Shown: positions 454 through 63,315 of the stretch, piece by piece
Position numbering within the stretch: position 1 is the first letter of the stretch
Layout: the number at the start of each line of letters is the position of its first letter
From: a virus
DNA: 64,000 nucleotides
IMG/VR virus record: IMGVR_UViG_3300018079_000012
Coordinates: 1 to 64,000 of that record
Strand: one strand, 5' to 3'
The notes under the pieces: generated by a model
Told to the model about the DNA's origin: nothing
The model's input: the letters and a program-made list of their open reading frames with translations, nothing else
Databases searched by the model: none
Position numbers and translations under genes: made by a program

Positions 454-1440
454 CTACTCCTCTCTTCCGTGCGCTAAATCGTCTCGTAGTCTCGCGTCTT
501 CATCTATTACCGCCGGGTCGCGACTGGTTAATTGTTCGTTCATTAACAGCGACTTGTAGAACTCCGGCAAGCCTCTGCGTATCCCGCGTTCAATCTGCGG
601 CCAGCAGTGTTTCCATAACGTCTGCTCGATGTACTTAGATTCTTCTTCCAATACGTCGCGTGTTAGTTCCGTCAGCAACGCGGGTATATCGCGCATACTC
701 CCTTGGAGTTTACCGTCGTCACGTAAATGCTGGACGACTTTACTCCACCGCGCTTCAGTTCGTAACGCGATAACTAACTTCGCGATAACGTCGGAGTTCG
801 ACGGATTCGCCGATTTCCATTCCGCCGCGTGACGCTCCTTGAACTCCGCGCGGACGATTTTGGCGATTAACAATTTCCCATCTCGGCCAAATATATCACC
901 ATTCGCAGGCTTCAGTACGACACCTTCTATAGGACCGCCGAGGATAGATTCGTTCGTCAGAAGTTCGTTTAGCGTATCGGAGAAACCAGGAGTTGATATC
1001 TTGAATTCTCCGTAGTAAGGAATACACTGGAAATCGATACGCGCACACGCTCCCGGTTTCTCATTGACCGATAAGAATCGGCTCGGCGAAGCCTCGATAT
1101 CGAAGACGATAATATTCCCACGCGGGACGACACGGTACGCAAGTGTGGTATGTTTAGGCTTCGACAAGTACTCTCCGCGATACGTCCAACCGTCCACCAG
1201 TAAATCCTTCCTCGCGACTATCTCTTCTACCGCCTTCTTGAACATATGTCCGTCGGGAGCGGGTACTGGGACGATGGCACCGCGACTACGGACGTAGATA
1301 TCGTCACCGATGCGGCCGAACGATATCTGCGATCCGTCGATTTTCTCTTCAGCGATTACCGGGACGTTCAGTAATGGGTCTAGTTCTCTATGGCCAAGCG
1401 GCCAAATATGCGGGTAGCTAGATAAGCGTTCGTTGTCCAT
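454..1440 (-). CDS. RNA ligase (Rnl2-like nucleotidyltransferase)
   Basis: 328 aa. The signature motifs of the covalent nucleotidyltransferase superfamily occur in order: motif I EEKIDGS with the adenylated Lys33, motif III RGEYL, motif IIIa IVFDIEA, motif IV EGVVLK, and motif V AKIVRAEFKE. The length and the helical C-terminal part (residues 215-328) fit the T4 Rnl2/DRB0094-type RNA ligases rather than DNA ligases, which carry an OB fold. It would seal 3'-OH/5'-phosphate nicks in RNA, for example tRNA breaks made by host anticodon nucleases; no polynucleotide kinase/phosphatase partner is recognised in the window. Start: ATG at 1440 behind GAGAGGGG, directly downstream of an ECF-type promoter. 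Confidence 0.9.
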   Translation of the reverse strand: MDNERLSSYPHIWPLGHRELDPLLNVPVIAEEKIDGSQISFGRIGDDIYVRSRGAIVPVPAPDGHMFKKAVEEIVARKDLLVDGWTYRGEYLSKPKHTTLAYRVVPRGNIIVFDIEASPSRFLSVNEKPGACARIDFQCIPYYGEFKISTPGFSDTLNELLTNESILGGPIEGVVLKPANGDIFGRDGKLLIAKIVRAEFKERHAAEWKSANPSNSDVIAKLVIALRTEARWSKVVQHLRDDGKLQGSMRDIPALLTELTRDVLEEESKYIEQTLWKHCWPQIERGIRRGLPEFYKSLLMNEQLTSRDPAVIDEDARLRDDLAHGREE

Positions 1441-57859: not shown

Positions 57860-58016
57860 ATGCACCTTCTCGACGTAAAACTTCATCGACTAACTGAGAT
57901 TTCAATAAATCTTCAAAGTCCTTTGGTTCCCCTGCCATCTGCCAACAGTCGAAGCACAATCTGTACTTTGCTTTCCACAAGCCGTCTATTGAACGACGGC
58001 AAGCCGCGCATGTCAT
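57846..58016 (-). CDS. Zinc-binding protein, 56 aa
   Basis: ATG 58016 overlaps the polymerase stop (ATGA): MTCAACRRSIDGLWKAKYRL, CFDCWQMAGEP: CxxC...CxxC zinc site. A longer upstream frame inside the polymerase gene is not preferred. Confidence 0.65.
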   Translation of the reverse strand: MTCAACRRSIDGLWKAKYRLCFDCWQMAGEPKDFEDLLKSQLVDEVLRREGAYVGR

Positions 58017-61000
58017 TGGAGCACCAAAGGATTCTTGTCCGCCGCGTTCATCGCTTCCAGCCAATTCTCACCGAGCCCCGCGTCTACGGGACAAGAGAAG
58101 CCCGGTAATCTCCATGTCTCTTCTTGCATAAGTCCGATAAACTCCCCGCAGCGTTTATCCGGCCACTCGCGCGGGAGTTCATATACTAACTCGTCGTGTA
58201 CCTGAAGGATCGGTACATATCCAGTTTCCCTACGGTATCGGAGCATAACCGCCTGTACGTGGTCGGCGGAAACGCCTTGCCCGTACGCCGCAAGGACAAT
58301 TTTAGAGTCTTCTTCCATCGACCGCGTTAAAGCTGTCTCCTCACGAAACGGTCCGATAAGACGAATGAACCGCCCGGTCGGATATTTGACGTACCGACGG
58401 GCTTCGAATTCGGCTAACACTTTCTTCTGCCAGGCCCGGATCTGCGGGAAAGCGGCGAAGTAAACGTCCTCTTGGATTTCGAGGGCTTTTTTACGAGATC
58501 CAAACGATTCGTCTCCAAATAACATGTTGGCGAGATGTTTTCCAGTAAAAGCGACAACGCCGCCCGCAAAGGGCCAGTCTTTGTATACACGAAGGGCACC
58601 CGCCAGTATTGCGGATTTGACATAACTAGACTCCAGATCTTGTGACGTTACGACCTTCAAACCCATCCCGTAATTCGAATTACCGGAAACCATAACCCGG
58701 TCTTTATACCGGATCATGAAGTAGCCTGTCGAAGTCGAGAAGCAATACACCTTGCCAGAGAACGGACGTGTAAAGCGGTCCGCAGATCCCACACACATAT
58801 TTCGTCGTTTATTAAACGACACGGTGTATACGAAACAACCCTTTCCGAATCCCCGACACTGCGCGCCTCGCACTAATGCTTGAGTTCCAGACAAATGCGC
58901 AATGGTTTGAACCCATACTGCATTAGAGTAATTCGTTGTTCGGTACACTCGGGAATTAGGATATGTACTGCCATCCCACTTAGGTAACTCCGCTAAGAAA
59001 ACCTCCCGCTGTCTTTGCGTCAGTTTCAGGAGTTCCGAAGTAAAGTTCTTCTGTTTTGTTCCGTCTAGTAATGGAGAAGACCATTTTACGTATCCTGCTC
59101 TACCATGTGGTTTGTGGTCAGAACAAGGCTTCAGTTTGCACGAAAACAAGGACTCCATACGCTCGATTTTCCGAGTTTTTATAAAGTGGAACTTTACGTT
59201 ACCCCATTTGTCTACACTTCCATCAGCCTGTACCGCAACCGCTTGCATAACCTCGCGGTCGGAATAGACCGGTCCGGGCGTAATAAGAACGCCAGAGGTC
59301 GCTAAGTAATCTTCGTTCTCTAAAGAGTCTATTCTGACTTTGTCTACATGCAGATACCGTTTCTTGCCCCAATTAGACCGTCGTATCTTAGGCAGTCCGT
59401 GTTCAGGTGTCCCTTCTATTGAGGCAGAACGTCCGTGTAATACATGAGTCGGACCTGTATAATCATACTCGTGGTACTTTTCTGGCGTCTCAAAGAAAAT
59501 CCCATACGTCTCGTCCCAGACTGCGATCTCTTGCCCGGACCACTTAGATATATCGATCCAGCCATTAGATGTTAGTACCTCATGTCCGGCTGCGACACAG
59601 CCGTGCGACGTGATCTTCGCTAAGTCTCTCGGTTTCTTACCGCCTAACTCTGCGGCTTTATCGAATTTCCCCTCGGAGTTCTGAACTAACCATGTGAACA
59701 AATCCTTTGGGAAATCGCGGATGTCAAATCCTGCTAAATACATAATGCAGCGGGCTTCGAGCTGCTTGTAATCCGCTCGGCATAGCCGGAAATCCTGGCT
59801 ACGCGGTATAATCGCCGCCCGCGCTTGTTTTCCTAACCCATATTTCTGGAAATTATGCGCGTTCGGAGAAGAAGAAGATAAACGTCCTAACGACGAGCCG
59901 GTCGTATTGAACCGCGAGTGTAGAAATACACCTTCCGACTCTTCGGTCAAATGCTTCTTACCGAACCACGCTTCGGTACCCTTACCGCCTTCCTTGGACT
60001 TCCAGAGGTCTAACACCCCCGACTCTAACTCCGTTAACGGCGCCTCGGATAGTTGTTCTGCGACTTCGTTCGGTTTGTCGATAATCGAATACTTCCGGCC
60101 GATCTTTAGCATCTCGTCGCGGAGAGTGTTTTTCTGCGTATCTTTGAGCCGCAGACCACGTTCCTGCATCCAGGTTTTAACTTGCAACGAGCTACGGGGG
60201 TTAAATCGCCGATTAGCTTCGGGGAATAGTGCGTCTTGGAGATTTGAGATCCGCAAGTTCAACGCTTCGACCGTCGGTATATGAACGCGCATACCGCGTT
60301 CGCGCATTACTTCGCAGAGGTCGGTTAACTCTAGTAACTCACGGCGGAAGGTTATTGGGACCTTCATCCGGTCGAGTTCCTTGCTGTTCTCAACGTGAAC
60401 TTTGAGTCCGGCCCAAGAATCTACACCGTTATAACCCCAGATGTTATGCGTCGGGCAAGGATATTGGCCGGAGCAGTACTGACGCCAACAAGACTTCCAG
60501 TTCGGGACGTCTGTGACTAACGATGTAGCGGACCATAAGTTCATGAAGCCGAGAGAACCGGGATCGTCGTCTTCCTCGCGGTACGCGATTTTACATAGAT
60601 GCTGATTCGCGAGATAGTGTGTGAGCATCGCGTCTTCCCAGAAGTCCAGCGACGACGGGCACCCGGCGTTATCGAGGATCTTTTTGTCCGCAGAGATCGA
60701 GGAGTACCCGACGAGAGCGATATTATGACGTTTAGAAAAGTCTATGGCGTATTCGGCGAGCCGTTTGTCCCAACCGACCGACGCGGCTTCCCGGAGATTC
60801 GCGACGCCGAGGACGCTCGGACGTCCGGTGTCGGAGAATTCTAGATCTATCCCGAGACCTTCTGGTCCAGCGGCTTCTACTACACGTCGGAACGCGTCTG
60901 GGGTCCTATGTACCGGCGGGTATTCATCGGAAATCTCGTCGGACGACTTATGACTAGAGAACAACCCGTACTGAAGTTTAGCGTCCGGGAGAACGATTTG

Positions 61001-61018
61001 GAATTTACGCCGTGCCAC
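58013..61018 (-). CDS. DNA polymerase I-type (family A) with intein, 1001 aa
   Basis: N-terminal 3'-5' exonuclease with GIDLEFSDTG (Exo I), GYSSISADKKIL, FWEDAMLTHYLAN and YNGVDSW (Exo III). Polymerase domain: motif A LCRADYKQLEARCIMYLAG, motif B RDLAKITSHG/SNYGMG, motif C ILQVHDELVYELP. A 307-residue intein (residues 474-780) splits motif B; the spliced product would be 694 aa. At the position of E. coli Phe762 (AKxxxFG) this enzyme has His (AKITSHG). It copies the phage genome; 58016 and 61005 genes flank it with overlaps. Confidence 0.92.
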   Translation of the reverse strand: MARRKFQIVLPDAKLQYGLFSSHKSSDEISDEYPPVHRTPDAFRRVVEAAGPEGLGIDLEFSDTGRPSVLGVANLREAASVGWDKRLAEYAIDFSKRHNIALVGYSSISADKKILDNAGCPSSLDFWEDAMLTHYLANQHLCKIAYREEDDDPGSLGFMNLWSATSLVTDVPNWKSCWRQYCSGQYPCPTHNIWGYNGVDSWAGLKVHVENSKELDRMKVPITFRRELLELTDLCEVMRERGMRVHIPTVEALNLRISNLQDALFPEANRRFNPRSSLQVKTWMQERGLRLKDTQKNTLRDEMLKIGRKYSIIDKPNEVAEQLSEAPLTELESGVLDLWKSKEGGKGTEAWFGKKHLTEESEGVFLHSRFNTTGSSLGRLSSSSPNAHNFQKYGLGKQARAAIIPRSQDFRLCRADYKQLEARCIMYLAGFDIRDFPKDLFTWLVQNSEGKFDKAAELGGKKPRDLAKITSHGCVAAGHEVLTSNGWIDISKWSGQEIAVWDETYGIFFETPEKYHEYDYTGPTHVLHGRSASIEGTPEHGLPKIRRSNWGKKRYLHVDKVRIDSLENEDYLATSGVLITPGPVYSDREVMQAVAVQADGSVDKWGNVKFHFIKTRKIERMESLFSCKLKPCSDHKPHGRAGYVKWSSPLLDGTKQKNFTSELLKLTQRQREVFLAELPKWDGSTYPNSRVYRTTNYSNAVWVQTIAHLSGTQALVRGAQCRGFGKGCFVYTVSFNKRRNMCVGSADRFTRPFSGKVYCFSTSTGYFMIRYKDRVMVSGNSNYGMGLKVVTSQDLESSYVKSAILAGALRVYKDWPFAGGVVAFTGKHLANMLFGDESFGSRKKALEIQEDVYFAAFPQIRAWQKKVLAEFEARRYVKYPTGRFIRLIGPFREETALTRSMEEDSKIVLAAYGQGVSADHVQAVMLRYRRETGYVPILQVHDELVYELPREWPDKRCGEFIGLMQEETWRLPGFSCPVDAGLGENWLEAMNAADKNPLVLQ
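58679..59599 (-). other. Intein within DNA polymerase motif B, 307 aa
   Basis: Begins with Cys (HG|CVAAGHEVLTSNGW) and Hint block A/B features (SASIEGTPEHGLPKI, His in EGTPEH), and ends YFMIRYKDRVMVSGN|S, with Asn followed by Ser of the C-extein; the penultimate residue is Gly instead of the usual His. Central part contains AVAVQADGSVDKWGNVKF and FLAELPKWDGSTY, which look like degenerate LAGLIDADG repeats of a homing endonuclease. Splicing restores AKITSHGSNYGMG. Confidence 0.85.
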
Positions 61019-61187: not shown

Positions 61188-61927
61188 TAGAATAACATTA
61201 ACGGTTCAACTAACTTCTTCACAGACTTCTTTCTTCGCCACGACGCCGGAGTCACAGGTCTAAAGTTTTTCAGAACACTCGTCGTCGGCGATATTAACTT
61301 CCGTTCCGTCCGCAGACTCCCGGCAAAATAATGCCCGCGCCAATAACTCACACCCCCAATGCCTTCAATAGCGGGTAAAACCAACGCCGCAGCTTTATCG
61401 CCGCACAGTACGCAGACCCGGTAACCCTTCTCCATAAACCGCGCGGCTTTCTCAAAGTCCCGGCGGACAAGGAAGAAGTACGCGTTTTCGCGCAGTACGG
61501 CGGCTGGATGTAAAGTAATAACAAAGAGATTAGGATCCCAGTCAGCGATCCCGCCGGGAGCCAAATTCCCTCTTTGGTCACCATGATACCAGTCGTACTG
61601 GCGGCAGACTTGCTCGGCTTTCTTCCGCGTAGGGCCGTTAGGATATTCATTTTCCTCTCCCCGGCACCGGATACAATTGTCCAAGATAACGTCGTCGCGT
61701 TCCAATCCTAACGGCCGCAGAAAAGCGTGGAACATTAGGTCTCCGGACATACCGACGAGCGGTGTACGTTTGAGAGCTTCGTTCTCGCCGGGTGCTTCCA
61801 GTAAACACGCGAACTTAGGATATTTAGGGACCCAACCGGGGACGAAACTGTGTGACGACGAGGACCACGGACATAACGCGCAGAGCGAAGGCTTACTGAG
61901 GACGCCGAGGATAGGAAAGGTCGTCAT
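61187..61927 (-). CDS. Uracil-DNA glycosylase (Fe-S family 4/5 type), 246 aa
   Basis: CALCPWSS and later CIRCRG...CRQYD supply the Fe-S cysteines; motif 1 region LLEAPGENEALKRTPLVGMSG matches the G-E-x-P-G-E/PG...G..F..AG(S)G-type nucleotide pocket of family 4 enzymes; ITLHPAAVLR is the second active-site motif. Excises uracil from DNA; in phages possibly linked to uracil-containing or modified genomes or replication fidelity. Confidence 0.8.
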   Translation of the reverse strand: MTTFPILGVLSKPSLCALCPWSSSSHSFVPGWVPKYPKFACLLEAPGENEALKRTPLVGMSGDLMFHAFLRPLGLERDDVILDNCIRCRGEENEYPNGPTRKKAEQVCRQYDWYHGDQRGNLAPGGIADWDPNLFVITLHPAAVLRENAYFFLVRRDFEKAARFMEKGYRVCVLCGDKAAALVLPAIEGIGGVSYWRGHYFAGSLRTERKLISPTTSVLKNFRPVTPASWRRKKSVKKLVEPLMLF

Positions 61928-61945
61928 TAGATATAACTAGGGAGT

Positions 61946-62032
61946 GAGACGCTGGAAGTTGTAGTCCGGCTTAACAAGCTAAGGGCCGGTGTCTACTCCC
62001 CCGTTTATTCCCCTAAATATTCACGGCGTCTC
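61946..62032 (-). other. Long intergenic hairpin structure
   Basis: GAGACGC/GCGTCTC (62032-62026 with 61952-61946) encloses GTAG...CTAC and CCGG(CC)CTTA-GCTTGT-TAAGCCGG. Non-coding region between the glycosylase gene and the split tRNA; could be a processing or transcription-control structure. No U-run. Confidence 0.45.
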
Positions 62033-62044
62033 CCATAACTCTAG

Positions 62045-62533
62045 TGGGCCATTCGGGAGTTGAACCACGAATTTGGCGCTTATAAGATACCGGCTTCTAC
62101 TTCAGCATGACAATTACTACATAACATGTCACACTTCCTCAATTCCTTTAGGACAATTTTCCAATTCTTAGAGTATGCTAAAGAAAGAGAAAACATCTTC
62201 GAGGCTTTATTCCTATGATGAAATTCCAAAGCCTTTATACAACGTGAGTAACCACACTTTTGGCACTTTCCACCTTTTGTTTCGACCATCTTCTTCTTTA
62301 TCAAATCCCTACGGGATCTGTTGTATACCACCGCGCGTTTCTTACGTGATGTATATACTATGCAGGGAAGAGGTCTTGTATTGTACTTGCCGAATGGGGA
62401 ACATACTAAGCAGTACTTTCGGTTTCTAAGAAATCTTACTTTGCCTTTTATGACAACCCTACGTGGAAAACTTGAGTTACAGTTTTGACAAAACATTAAA
62501 TGCGCCCGCTCTAGTCCGTTGAGCTAATGGCCC
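62045..62533 (-). tRNA. Split tRNA gene (Ile-type, anticodon loop interrupted by HNH ORF)
   Basis: 5' half at 62533-62499: acceptor GGGCCAT, D-arm GCTC/GAGC with AACGGACTA loop, anticodon stem GGCGC, then ATT. 3' half at 62086-62045: ATAA, GCGCC, variable loop, T-arm around TTCAACT, acceptor ATGGCCC, discriminator A. Stems GGCGC/GCGCC and GGGCCAT/ATGGCCC pair perfectly. Joined after ATT the loop would read ATTATAA (anticodon UAU, Ile). The T-stem has one bulged T (TCG-T-GG against CCCGA) and no CCA is encoded. The approximately 415-base insertion is nearly all HNH ORF. Confidence 0.7.
62080..62496 (-). CDS. HNH endonuclease inside a tRNA gene, 138 aa
   Basis: N-terminal zinc part MFCQNCNSSFPRR...YCLVCSPFGKY; HNH core GGKCQKCGYSRCIKALEFHH and CDMLCSNCHAEVE. 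Start ATG 62496 lies 5 bases after the tRNA anticodon stem and the TAA stop is in the tRNA loop, so the ORF fills the whole insertion, leaving no room for a separate group I intron core. A/T-rich compared with neighbours. A mobile gene by type. Confidence 0.85.
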   Translation of the reverse strand: MFCQNCNSSFPRRVVIKGKVRFLRNRKYCLVCSPFGKYNTRPLPCIVYTSRKKRAVVYNRSRRDLIKKKMVETKGGKCQKCGYSRCIKALEFHHRNKASKMFSLSLAYSKNWKIVLKELRKCDMLCSNCHAEVEAGIL

Positions 62534-62534
62534 G

Positions 62535-62712
62535 AAGATCATAAAAGTGGCCGCGTTTGTCCCCCACGCGTTTAACGAGAACCTAGGGGTCGTTCTCGCA
62601 CCACTCTAACGCCCGCCGACTTGTAGTCAGCGAACGTTACTGGCTGGGTCTTTAAGCCGCCCCATTTAACTCCACCCTGGTCCGCGCGGAGCACCCCTGA
62701 CTACTAGCCGAT
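62535..62712 (-). other. Structured intergenic region next to the split tRNA
   Basis: Minus-strand hairpins: TAACGTTCGCTGA/TCGGCGGGCGTTA, a 13-bp stem (three GU) with loop CTACAAG; GAGAAC/GTTCTC; CGCGT/ACGCG; and CTCCGCGCGGACC. No protein frame. Might be an ncRNA or part of a tRNA precursor transcript. Confidence 0.4.
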
Positions 62713-63315
62713 TTACACTTCGAACGTCATCACGTATCGAGCCGGATCGGCCGCCGCTTTCTTAGCGAATCTCTCTGCGTCCGTCTTCGTCGCGGGGAAG
62801 AAGTACCCCACGTCGTAGAAGCGTGTCAGGGCGCCCGTGTCGCGGTCTTTCTTTTGCTGCATAACATACCCGAATATAGCACCGGGCTCAGGTGGGTCGG
62901 CCGACGCGTTTCCTTCGGAGTACTTCATAAACCGGTCCGCGAGTAACCGCTCAACTCCGTCCGGCGATTTATCGGCGAGCGAAATCAACTCATCCGATAA
63001 CGTCAGATAACGCTCATCGGCAGATTCGTCACTGCCAACGAACGCGCGTAACGCTGGTGTTTGATCCGACGCGACGTTCTTAGAAAAAACGAACATCGGG
63101 CCTTTCTCCAGCGAATTAGGGTCGAAATTCTCCACCAGCCAATCCGGCCGGTACATGAAGTTGTATTTCGTTGAACGACCGGCTTGGATAGCTTGGATCT
63201 GTACGTTAGTCATCACGTAACCAGCGGGCGACAACTTCGTCGGTCCGACAGACGCAACGCGACCGATGCAGACTAAATCCGGCTGCTCGGGAATATCAGG
63301 TGCTTTGAACGGCAT
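62713..63315 (-). CDS. Hypothetical protein, 200 aa (possible ssDNA-binding type)
   Basis: Begins MPFKAPDIPEQPDLVCIGRV...; first 90 residues are beta-rich (PAGYVMTNVQIQAIQAGRST, KYNFMYRPDWLVENF), compatible with an OB fold; second half is helical. Location in the replication arm would fit a single-stranded DNA-binding protein, but no diagnostic motif is seen and the Phe-rich acidic tail of SSB is absent. Confidence 0.6.
   Translation of the reverse strand: MPFKAPDIPEQPDLVCIGRVASVGPTKLSPAGYVMTNVQIQAIQAGRSTKYNFMYRPDWLVENFDPNSLEKGPMFVFSKNVASDQTPALRAFVGSDESADERYLTLSDELISLADKSPDGVERLLADRFMKYSEGNASADPPEPGAIFGYVMQQKKDRDTGALTRFYDVGYFFPATKTDAERFAKKAAADPARYVMTFEV

What the first reader, a model, noticed from the sequence alone, without database searches (positions are those of the whole stretch)
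62045..62533. tRNA anticodon loop opened by an HNH ORF that fills the entire insertion
Two halves of one tRNA flank an approximately 415-base insertion; acceptor and anticodon stems pair perfectly across it. The insertion is essentially the HNH coding frame itself (start 5 bases after the anticodon stem, stop inside the loop), leaving no room for a typical group I intron core outside the ORF. Either the tRNA is spliced by an unknown or ORF-overlapping intron, or it is a freshly broken gene whose HNH targets the anticodon loop. The bulged T-stem base and missing CCA hint at decay, while the intact stems hint at function.
Basis: partly seen in the sequence, partly recalled or inferred. Interest (0 to 1): 0.7.

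Follow-up and report, generated by a model that had tools for sequence, protein, structure and literature searches.

The report
HNH nuclease gene splitting phage tRNA
In this phage a small selfish DNA-cutting-enzyme gene sits exactly inside the anticodon loop of a transfer-RNA gene with no self-splicing intron around it, so the tRNA is most likely broken; relatives of the enzyme live beside, inside introns of, and occasionally directly inside other tRNA genes, which makes the tRNA anticodon loop its likely target.

Summary
On the minus strand at 62042-62533, two halves of one AUA-decoding tRNA-Ile (acceptor stem 7/7, anticodon stem 5/5) flank an insert that is essentially a 138-codon HNH gene. 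Its stop codon, TAA, is U36-A37-A38 of the anticodon loop. None of 300 shuffled windows reproduces this.

No group I, group II or other known ribozyme is detectable, even at E<10. The same search finds group I cores in all 8 HNH-bearing tRNA introns tested.

Relatives settle the kind. In bacterial genomes most homologs (56 of 76) lie in tRNA anticodon-loop introns. In viral contigs they are free-standing in tRNA arrays. The window protein carries the N-terminal zinc ribbon seen only in free-standing members, so it probably did not arise by an intron losing its core. A second viral contig (L274) has a tRNA-Asn split the same way, with its anticodon stem destroyed; two others have the HNH stop abutting a 3' tRNA half.

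Best reading: a free-standing HNH homing endonuclease homed without an intron into its probable target and broke the tRNA. The T-stem bulge and CCA changed to CTA agree. Cleavage specificity and loss of the tRNA are inferred. New variant of a known kind.

The parts
62500..62533 (-). 5' half of a tRNA gene: acceptor GGGCCAT, D-arm, anticodon-stem strand GGCGC, loop A32 T33
   Evidence: the same 5' half occurs in intact viral-contig tRNAs, 13 of 18 of them with anticodon CAT
62080..62496 (-). HNH endonuclease ORF, 138 aa: N-terminal zinc ribbon (CxxC...RKYCxxCSPFG), C-terminal HNH domain; stop TAA lies in the anticodon loop (U36 A37 A38)
   Evidence: PHROG 2255 HNH endonuclease E=1.9e-30; invariant family residues kept; GC 0.38, lowest in the window
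62045..62084 (-). 3' half of the same tRNA: loop T34-A38, anticodon-stem strand GCGCC, variable loop AAAT, T-arm with a one-base bulge, acceptor ATGGCCC, discriminator A
62042..62044 (-). CTA where CCA is expected; the window's tRNA-Leu and tRNA-Pro and the sister phage's tRNA-Ala and tRNA-Tyr carry CCA

Best explanation
A free-standing HNH homing-endonuclease gene, of a family that lives in phage tRNA arrays, has inserted itself without any ribozyme into the anticodon loop of a phage tRNA gene that read AUA (tRNA-Ile; original anticodon UAU or CAU). The insert is only the reading frame; the tRNA's own bases U36-A37-A38 supply its stop codon. Shown: the insertion, intact acceptor and anticodon stems, absence of a detectable ribozyme, the family's tRNA association, and a second split tRNA. 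Inferred: the enzyme cuts (or nicks) intact tRNA genes at or near the anticodon loop; double-strand-break repair copies the gene into the cut (intronless homing); insertion destroys the site and so protects the carrier; the tRNA is no longer made and is decaying.
For: (1) Two tRNA halves pair across an insert filled by the ORF. (2) No Rfam group I/II match to E=10, while all 8 HNH-bearing tRNA introns tested match RF00028 at E<=1.7e-7. There the core starts near the ORF's 3' end and runs about 200 nt beyond it; here nothing lies between the stop and the 3' half. (3) Family: of 121 viral clusters at 80% identity, 105 lie within 300 nt of a tRNA and 63 directly upstream of one, 39 overlapping it; 56 of 76 genome homologs are inside tRNA introns, only 1 of 157 viral ones. 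(4) All 28 homologs with the zinc-ribbon motif are free-standing, none of 58 intron-encoded ones has it; the tree groups the window protein with free-standing viral members. (5) L274: tRNA-Asn acceptor TGGTGAG 1240-1246 / CTCACCA 1870-1876, HNH in between, stop TAA in the anticodon loop, 5' anticodon strand lost, no ribozyme; L281 and L001 have an HNH stop against a 3' tRNA half. (6) T-stem bulge and CTA for CCA. (7) GC 0.38.
Against: Acceptor and anticodon stems are perfect, which fits a recent insertion but also selection for function. The phage uses AUA heavily (13 per 1000 codons), so the tRNA might still be wanted. No relative with the same tRNA uninterrupted at this locus was found: the sister phage has tRNA-Ala(TGC) there and no HNH. 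Cleavage of the anticodon region has not been tested.
Confidence: 0.77

Rival explanations
1. Degenerate group I intron: the tRNA once held an HNH-bearing group I intron and deletion removed the ribozyme core, leaving only the ORF.
For: Intron-encoded homologs start just after the 5' splice site of tRNA introns in the same loop, so removing the roughly 200-nt core would give this layout.
Against: The window HNH has the zinc ribbon found in no intron-encoded homolog and groups with free-standing viral members. The deletion would have had to stop exactly at the anticodon loop. L274, L281 and L001 show HNH stops at the same place without core remnants.
Confidence: 0.1
2. A functional spliced tRNA: the insert is removed by an unrecognised self-splicing RNA hidden in the ORF, or by host or phage enzymes.
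For: Perfect acceptor and anticodon stems; heavy AUA use; the phage encodes an RNA ligase (454-1440); the minimum-energy fold brings the stems together across the insert.
Against: No known ribozyme at E<10. No bulge-helix-bulge register with four Watson-Crick pairs; the one register with four pairs reaches them only by counting G-U pairs and leaves a stop-reading anticodon. The T-stem needs a bulge and CCA is CTA. The analogous L274 insertion has lost the anticodon stem.
Confidence: 0.07
3. Chance tRNA look-alikes or an assembly chimera around an ordinary free-standing HNH gene.
For: Single virus record from a sequence collection; ARAGORN intron mode makes some spurious calls (27 in 300 shuffles).
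Against: None of those 27 has an ORF filling the insert. The 5' half matches intact viral-contig tRNAs with the same acceptor pairing. L274, L281 and L001 show similar junctions in other contigs.
Confidence: 0.04

Closest known systems
Phage T4/T6 SegB, free-standing GIY-YIG homing endonuclease of the tRNA array (PMC2988022, PMC13096335)
   Same: Free-standing nuclease gene in a phage tRNA array; its cleavage sites were mapped within tRNA genes
   Different: Another nuclease family (GIY-YIG); located between tRNA genes, not inside one
[quoted passage not shown]
   Same: Nuclease specificity for a tRNA anticodon region; gene located in the anticodon loop
   Different: Carried by a group I intron; here there is no ribozyme
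HNH-bearing group I introns in bacterial tRNA-Asn and tRNA-Thr genes
   Same: Homologous HNH domain, same loop of the tRNA, ORF starts just after the 5' exon
   Different: About 500-710-nt introns with a group I core; HNH lacks the N-terminal zinc ribbon
Free-standing HNH genes of PHROG 2255 in phage tRNA arrays
   Same: Same family, zinc ribbon in several, gene ends abut or overlap tRNA genes
   Different: Nearly all leave the neighbouring tRNA intact
Phage Aeh1 mobE insertion in nrdA (gene in pieces; recalled from the literature, not read here)
   Same: Free-standing HNH homing gene inserted inside a conserved gene without an intron
   Different: Protein gene whose halves still work together; here a tRNA with decay marks

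Membership tests
HNH endonuclease (PHROG 2255) | Sequence match and conserved HNH/zinc residues | tested here: met
   E=1.9e-30; invariant columns kept, including H92, H93, C77, C80, C125, C128, H129
HNH endonuclease (PHROG 2255) | DNA cleavage activity | not testable with these tools
   No assay; Pfam gave no match at E<0.001
Free-standing (intronless) homing endonuclease | Gene not carried by a self-splicing element | tested here: met
   No ribozyme at E<10; positive controls found
Free-standing (intronless) homing endonuclease | Moves into alleles lacking it by cutting them | not testable with these tools
   Optional presence is seen (sister phage lacks the gene); cutting not testable
Group I intron | Catalytic core | tested here: not met
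   insert is the ORF plus 5 nt
Archaeal bulge-helix-bulge tRNA intron | Two 3-nt bulges 4 bp apart at the exon junctions | tested here: not met
   Best register reaches four pairs only by counting G-U pairs, and would leave anticodon UUA
Functional tRNA-Ile | Regular T-arm and 3' CCA or a maturable 3' end | tested here: not met
   T-stem needs a bulge; CTA for CCA
Functional tRNA-Ile | Mature joined RNA in the cell | not testable with these tools
   Needs RNA data

The most novel reading that the evidence does not exclude
The tRNA is still made: a protein-coding insert is cut out of the anticodon loop after position 33 and the halves are rejoined, perhaps by the RNA ligase this phage encodes, which would be a bacterial-virus tRNA intron with no ribozyme.
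Probability: 0.05. Interest if true: 0.88.

Novelty: new variant of a known kind. Interest (0 to 1): 0.5.

Why it matters
One HNH family is found in three states: free-standing beside phage tRNAs, inside group I introns in bacterial tRNA anticodon loops, and, here and in L274, directly inside a viral tRNA gene with no intron. That is close to what collaborative homing, the proposed joining of a free-standing endonuclease pre-adapted to the site with an endonuclease-free intron (PMC2988022), would need. It makes the order of events testable and gives a simple assay: does the free-standing enzyme cut tRNA anticodon loops? It also suggests how such nucleases can break phage tRNA genes. The searches made here in the held open-access library found no report of an HNH gene inserted directly in a tRNA.

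Tried and rejected
Same-anticodon tRNAs flanking free-standing HNH genes (a duplication model): 5 of 46 against 20 of 271 background, dropped. Preference of free-standing members for U36 (ANN-reading) tRNAs: not significant in the first sample (24/42 against 166/340) and significant in the enlarged one (45/63 against 283/614, p=9e-5; Asn 27/63, p=2e-10), but part of that sample was fetched with an Asn/Thr-intron-derived query, so only suggestive. Loss of a catalytic His at the C-terminus (HxxxE): rejected, relatives also have E or A there. An empty-site search with the joined 74-nt tRNA in phage records gave only a distant tRNA-Asn. The sister phage's tRNA-Ala at the equivalent place is not the same tRNA. 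A solved structure by sequence: none. A brute-force junction scan for split tRNAs was noisy; after filtering it pointed to L001 and L281, whose 5' halves are unclear, and L274 came from the T-loop distance scan.

Full report
Observation. The window is a 64 kb stretch of a 64,559-bp virus record. It encodes a terminase, portal and major head protein, so it is a tailed phage. ARAGORN finds tRNA-Leu and tRNA-Pro in normal mode and, in intron mode, exactly one more: tRNA-Ile(tat) on the minus strand at 62044-62533 with a 415-nt insert after position 33. The acceptor stem (GGGCCAT/ATGGCCC) and anticodon stem (GGCGC/GCGCC) are perfect; the D-arm is regular. The T-stem pairs only with a one-base bulge. 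The 3' end reads CTA instead of CCA, whereas the window's tRNA-Leu and tRNA-Pro and the sister phage's tRNA-Ala and tRNA-Tyr carry CCA. The HNH ORF begins 5 nt after the anticodon stem, and its TAA stop is U36-A37-A38 of the loop. In 300 shuffled windows ARAGORN made 27 intron-tRNA calls, none with an ORF filling the insert.

Which tRNA. Inserting anywhere between positions 33 and 35 rebuilds a UAU loop. The same 5' half occurs in 18 viral contigs; in 13 of them the intact tRNA has anticodon CAT, in the others GAT, TGC or CTT. The broken gene therefore read AUA, as tRNA-Ile(UAU) or a CAU tRNA altered at position 34. AUA is 13 of 1000 codons here and 10 of 1000 in the sister phage, which has no tRNA-Ile.

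Is it an intron? cmscan of the region with permissive filters finds no group I, group II or other credible ribozyme at E<10. The positive control is strong: all eight HNH-bearing tRNA introns tested match RF00028 at E<=1.7e-7 (L112, L120, L138, L171; L114, L116, L144; L290). In those introns the core begins near the end of the ORF and continues about 200 nt past the stop; here the 3' tRNA half begins at the stop. Two ARAGORN 'introns' without an HNH (L037, L042) did not match Rfam, so the control is not perfect for every ARAGORN call. No bulge-helix-bulge site with four Watson-Crick central pairs exists at any register.

Relatives of the HNH. The protein matches PHROG 2255 HNH endonuclease. 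In one-genome-per-species bacterial assemblies, 56 of 76 distinct homologs sit inside ARAGORN tRNA introns, mostly tRNA-Asn(GUU) and tRNA-Thr, 52 of 58 in tRNAs with U36. In viral contigs 139 of 157 distinct homologs lie within 300 nt of a tRNA gene but only one is inside a tRNA intron (L290, with a group I core). After clustering at 80%, 63 of 121 viral members lie directly upstream of a tRNA and 39 overlap it. All 28 homologs with the RKxCxxCSP zinc-ribbon motif are free-standing and none of 58 intron-encoded ones has it; the window protein has it, and its nearest neighbours in the tree are the free-standing, tRNA-adjacent L050 and L070 (deeper nodes are poorly supported). The insert is thus more likely a free-standing gene that jumped in than an intron that lost its core.

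Further cases. L274 carries a tRNA-Asn whose acceptor strands TGGTGAG (1240-1246) and CTCACCA (1870-1876) pair perfectly around an HNH gene. That HNH also stops with TAA in the anticodon loop, immediately before the 3' anticodon-stem strand CCGAT. The 5' anticodon strand has been lost, so this tRNA is dead. L281 and L001 have an HNH stop directly against a 3' tRNA half, with a doubtful or decayed 5' half. No group I core is found in L274, L281 or L001. Insertion of this family at the anticodon loop without an intron therefore seems to have happened more than once, and in L274 it clearly cost the tRNA.

The locus. The closest relative found (L025, 81% identity in the neighbouring protein) has tRNA-Ala(TGC) and tRNA-Tyr between the same two genes and no HNH. 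It is not a strict empty site.

Mechanism. Intronless homing by free-standing endonucleases is established in T4 (PMC2988022, PMC3984707), and the T6 SegB enzyme of a tRNA array cuts within tRNA genes (PMC13096335). I infer that this HNH cuts or nicks tRNA anticodon arms and is copied into the break; inside the loop it destroys its own site. Shown: anatomy, lack of ribozyme, family association, L274. Inferred: cutting, homing, loss of tRNA function.

Limits. IMG/VR scans stop at the best 80 hits, so the counts are samples; the genome-contig counts rest on a single scan. The U36/Asn preference of free-standing members is sample-dependent. No RNA or biochemical data were available.

Noticed in passing
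window 58013-61018 (-): The family A DNA polymerase looks to be interrupted by an intein-like stretch (starts CVAAGHEVLTSNGW, ends VMVSGNSNYG), between the two parts of the DNA_pol_A match; recognised by eye, no intein profile was run.
   Followed up: no
window 454-1440 (-): RNA ligase (PF09414, phrog_548), of interest because tRNA repair at the anticodon loop is a known phage trick.
   Followed up: partly
window 61927-62043 (-) and 62534-62716 (-); L025 4948-5132 and 4574-4871: Intergenic stretches flanking the tRNA share blocks (GAGACRCCGTGAATAT...GGGGAATAAACGGGG...CGTCTCACTCCC; GGAGTTAAAYGGG) with the sister phage and may be unnamed structured RNAs; no Rfam match.
   Followed up: partly
L054 1658-1959; L290 1434-2053: tRNA-Thr genes with group I introns in viral contigs (76.6 and 70 bits), whereas a 2014 review (PMC3984707) knew phage introns only in protein genes.
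   Followed up: partly
L037 651-932, L038 1497-1778, L042 1538-1818: tRNA-Asn with a roughly 210-nt insert in related contigs; L037 and L042 were tested with Rfam and gave no group I match.
   Followed up: no
L050 1848-2258, L032, L017: HNH reading frames run through neighbouring tRNA genes: in L050 the only in-frame ATG upstream lies in a tRNA-Ile D-loop, and in L032 the frame ends in a tRNA-Asn anticodon loop.
   Followed up: partly
L274 1888-1966: Proteo-phage-1 RNA (RF03044, 58.7 bits) lies directly after the split tRNA-Asn.
   Followed up: no
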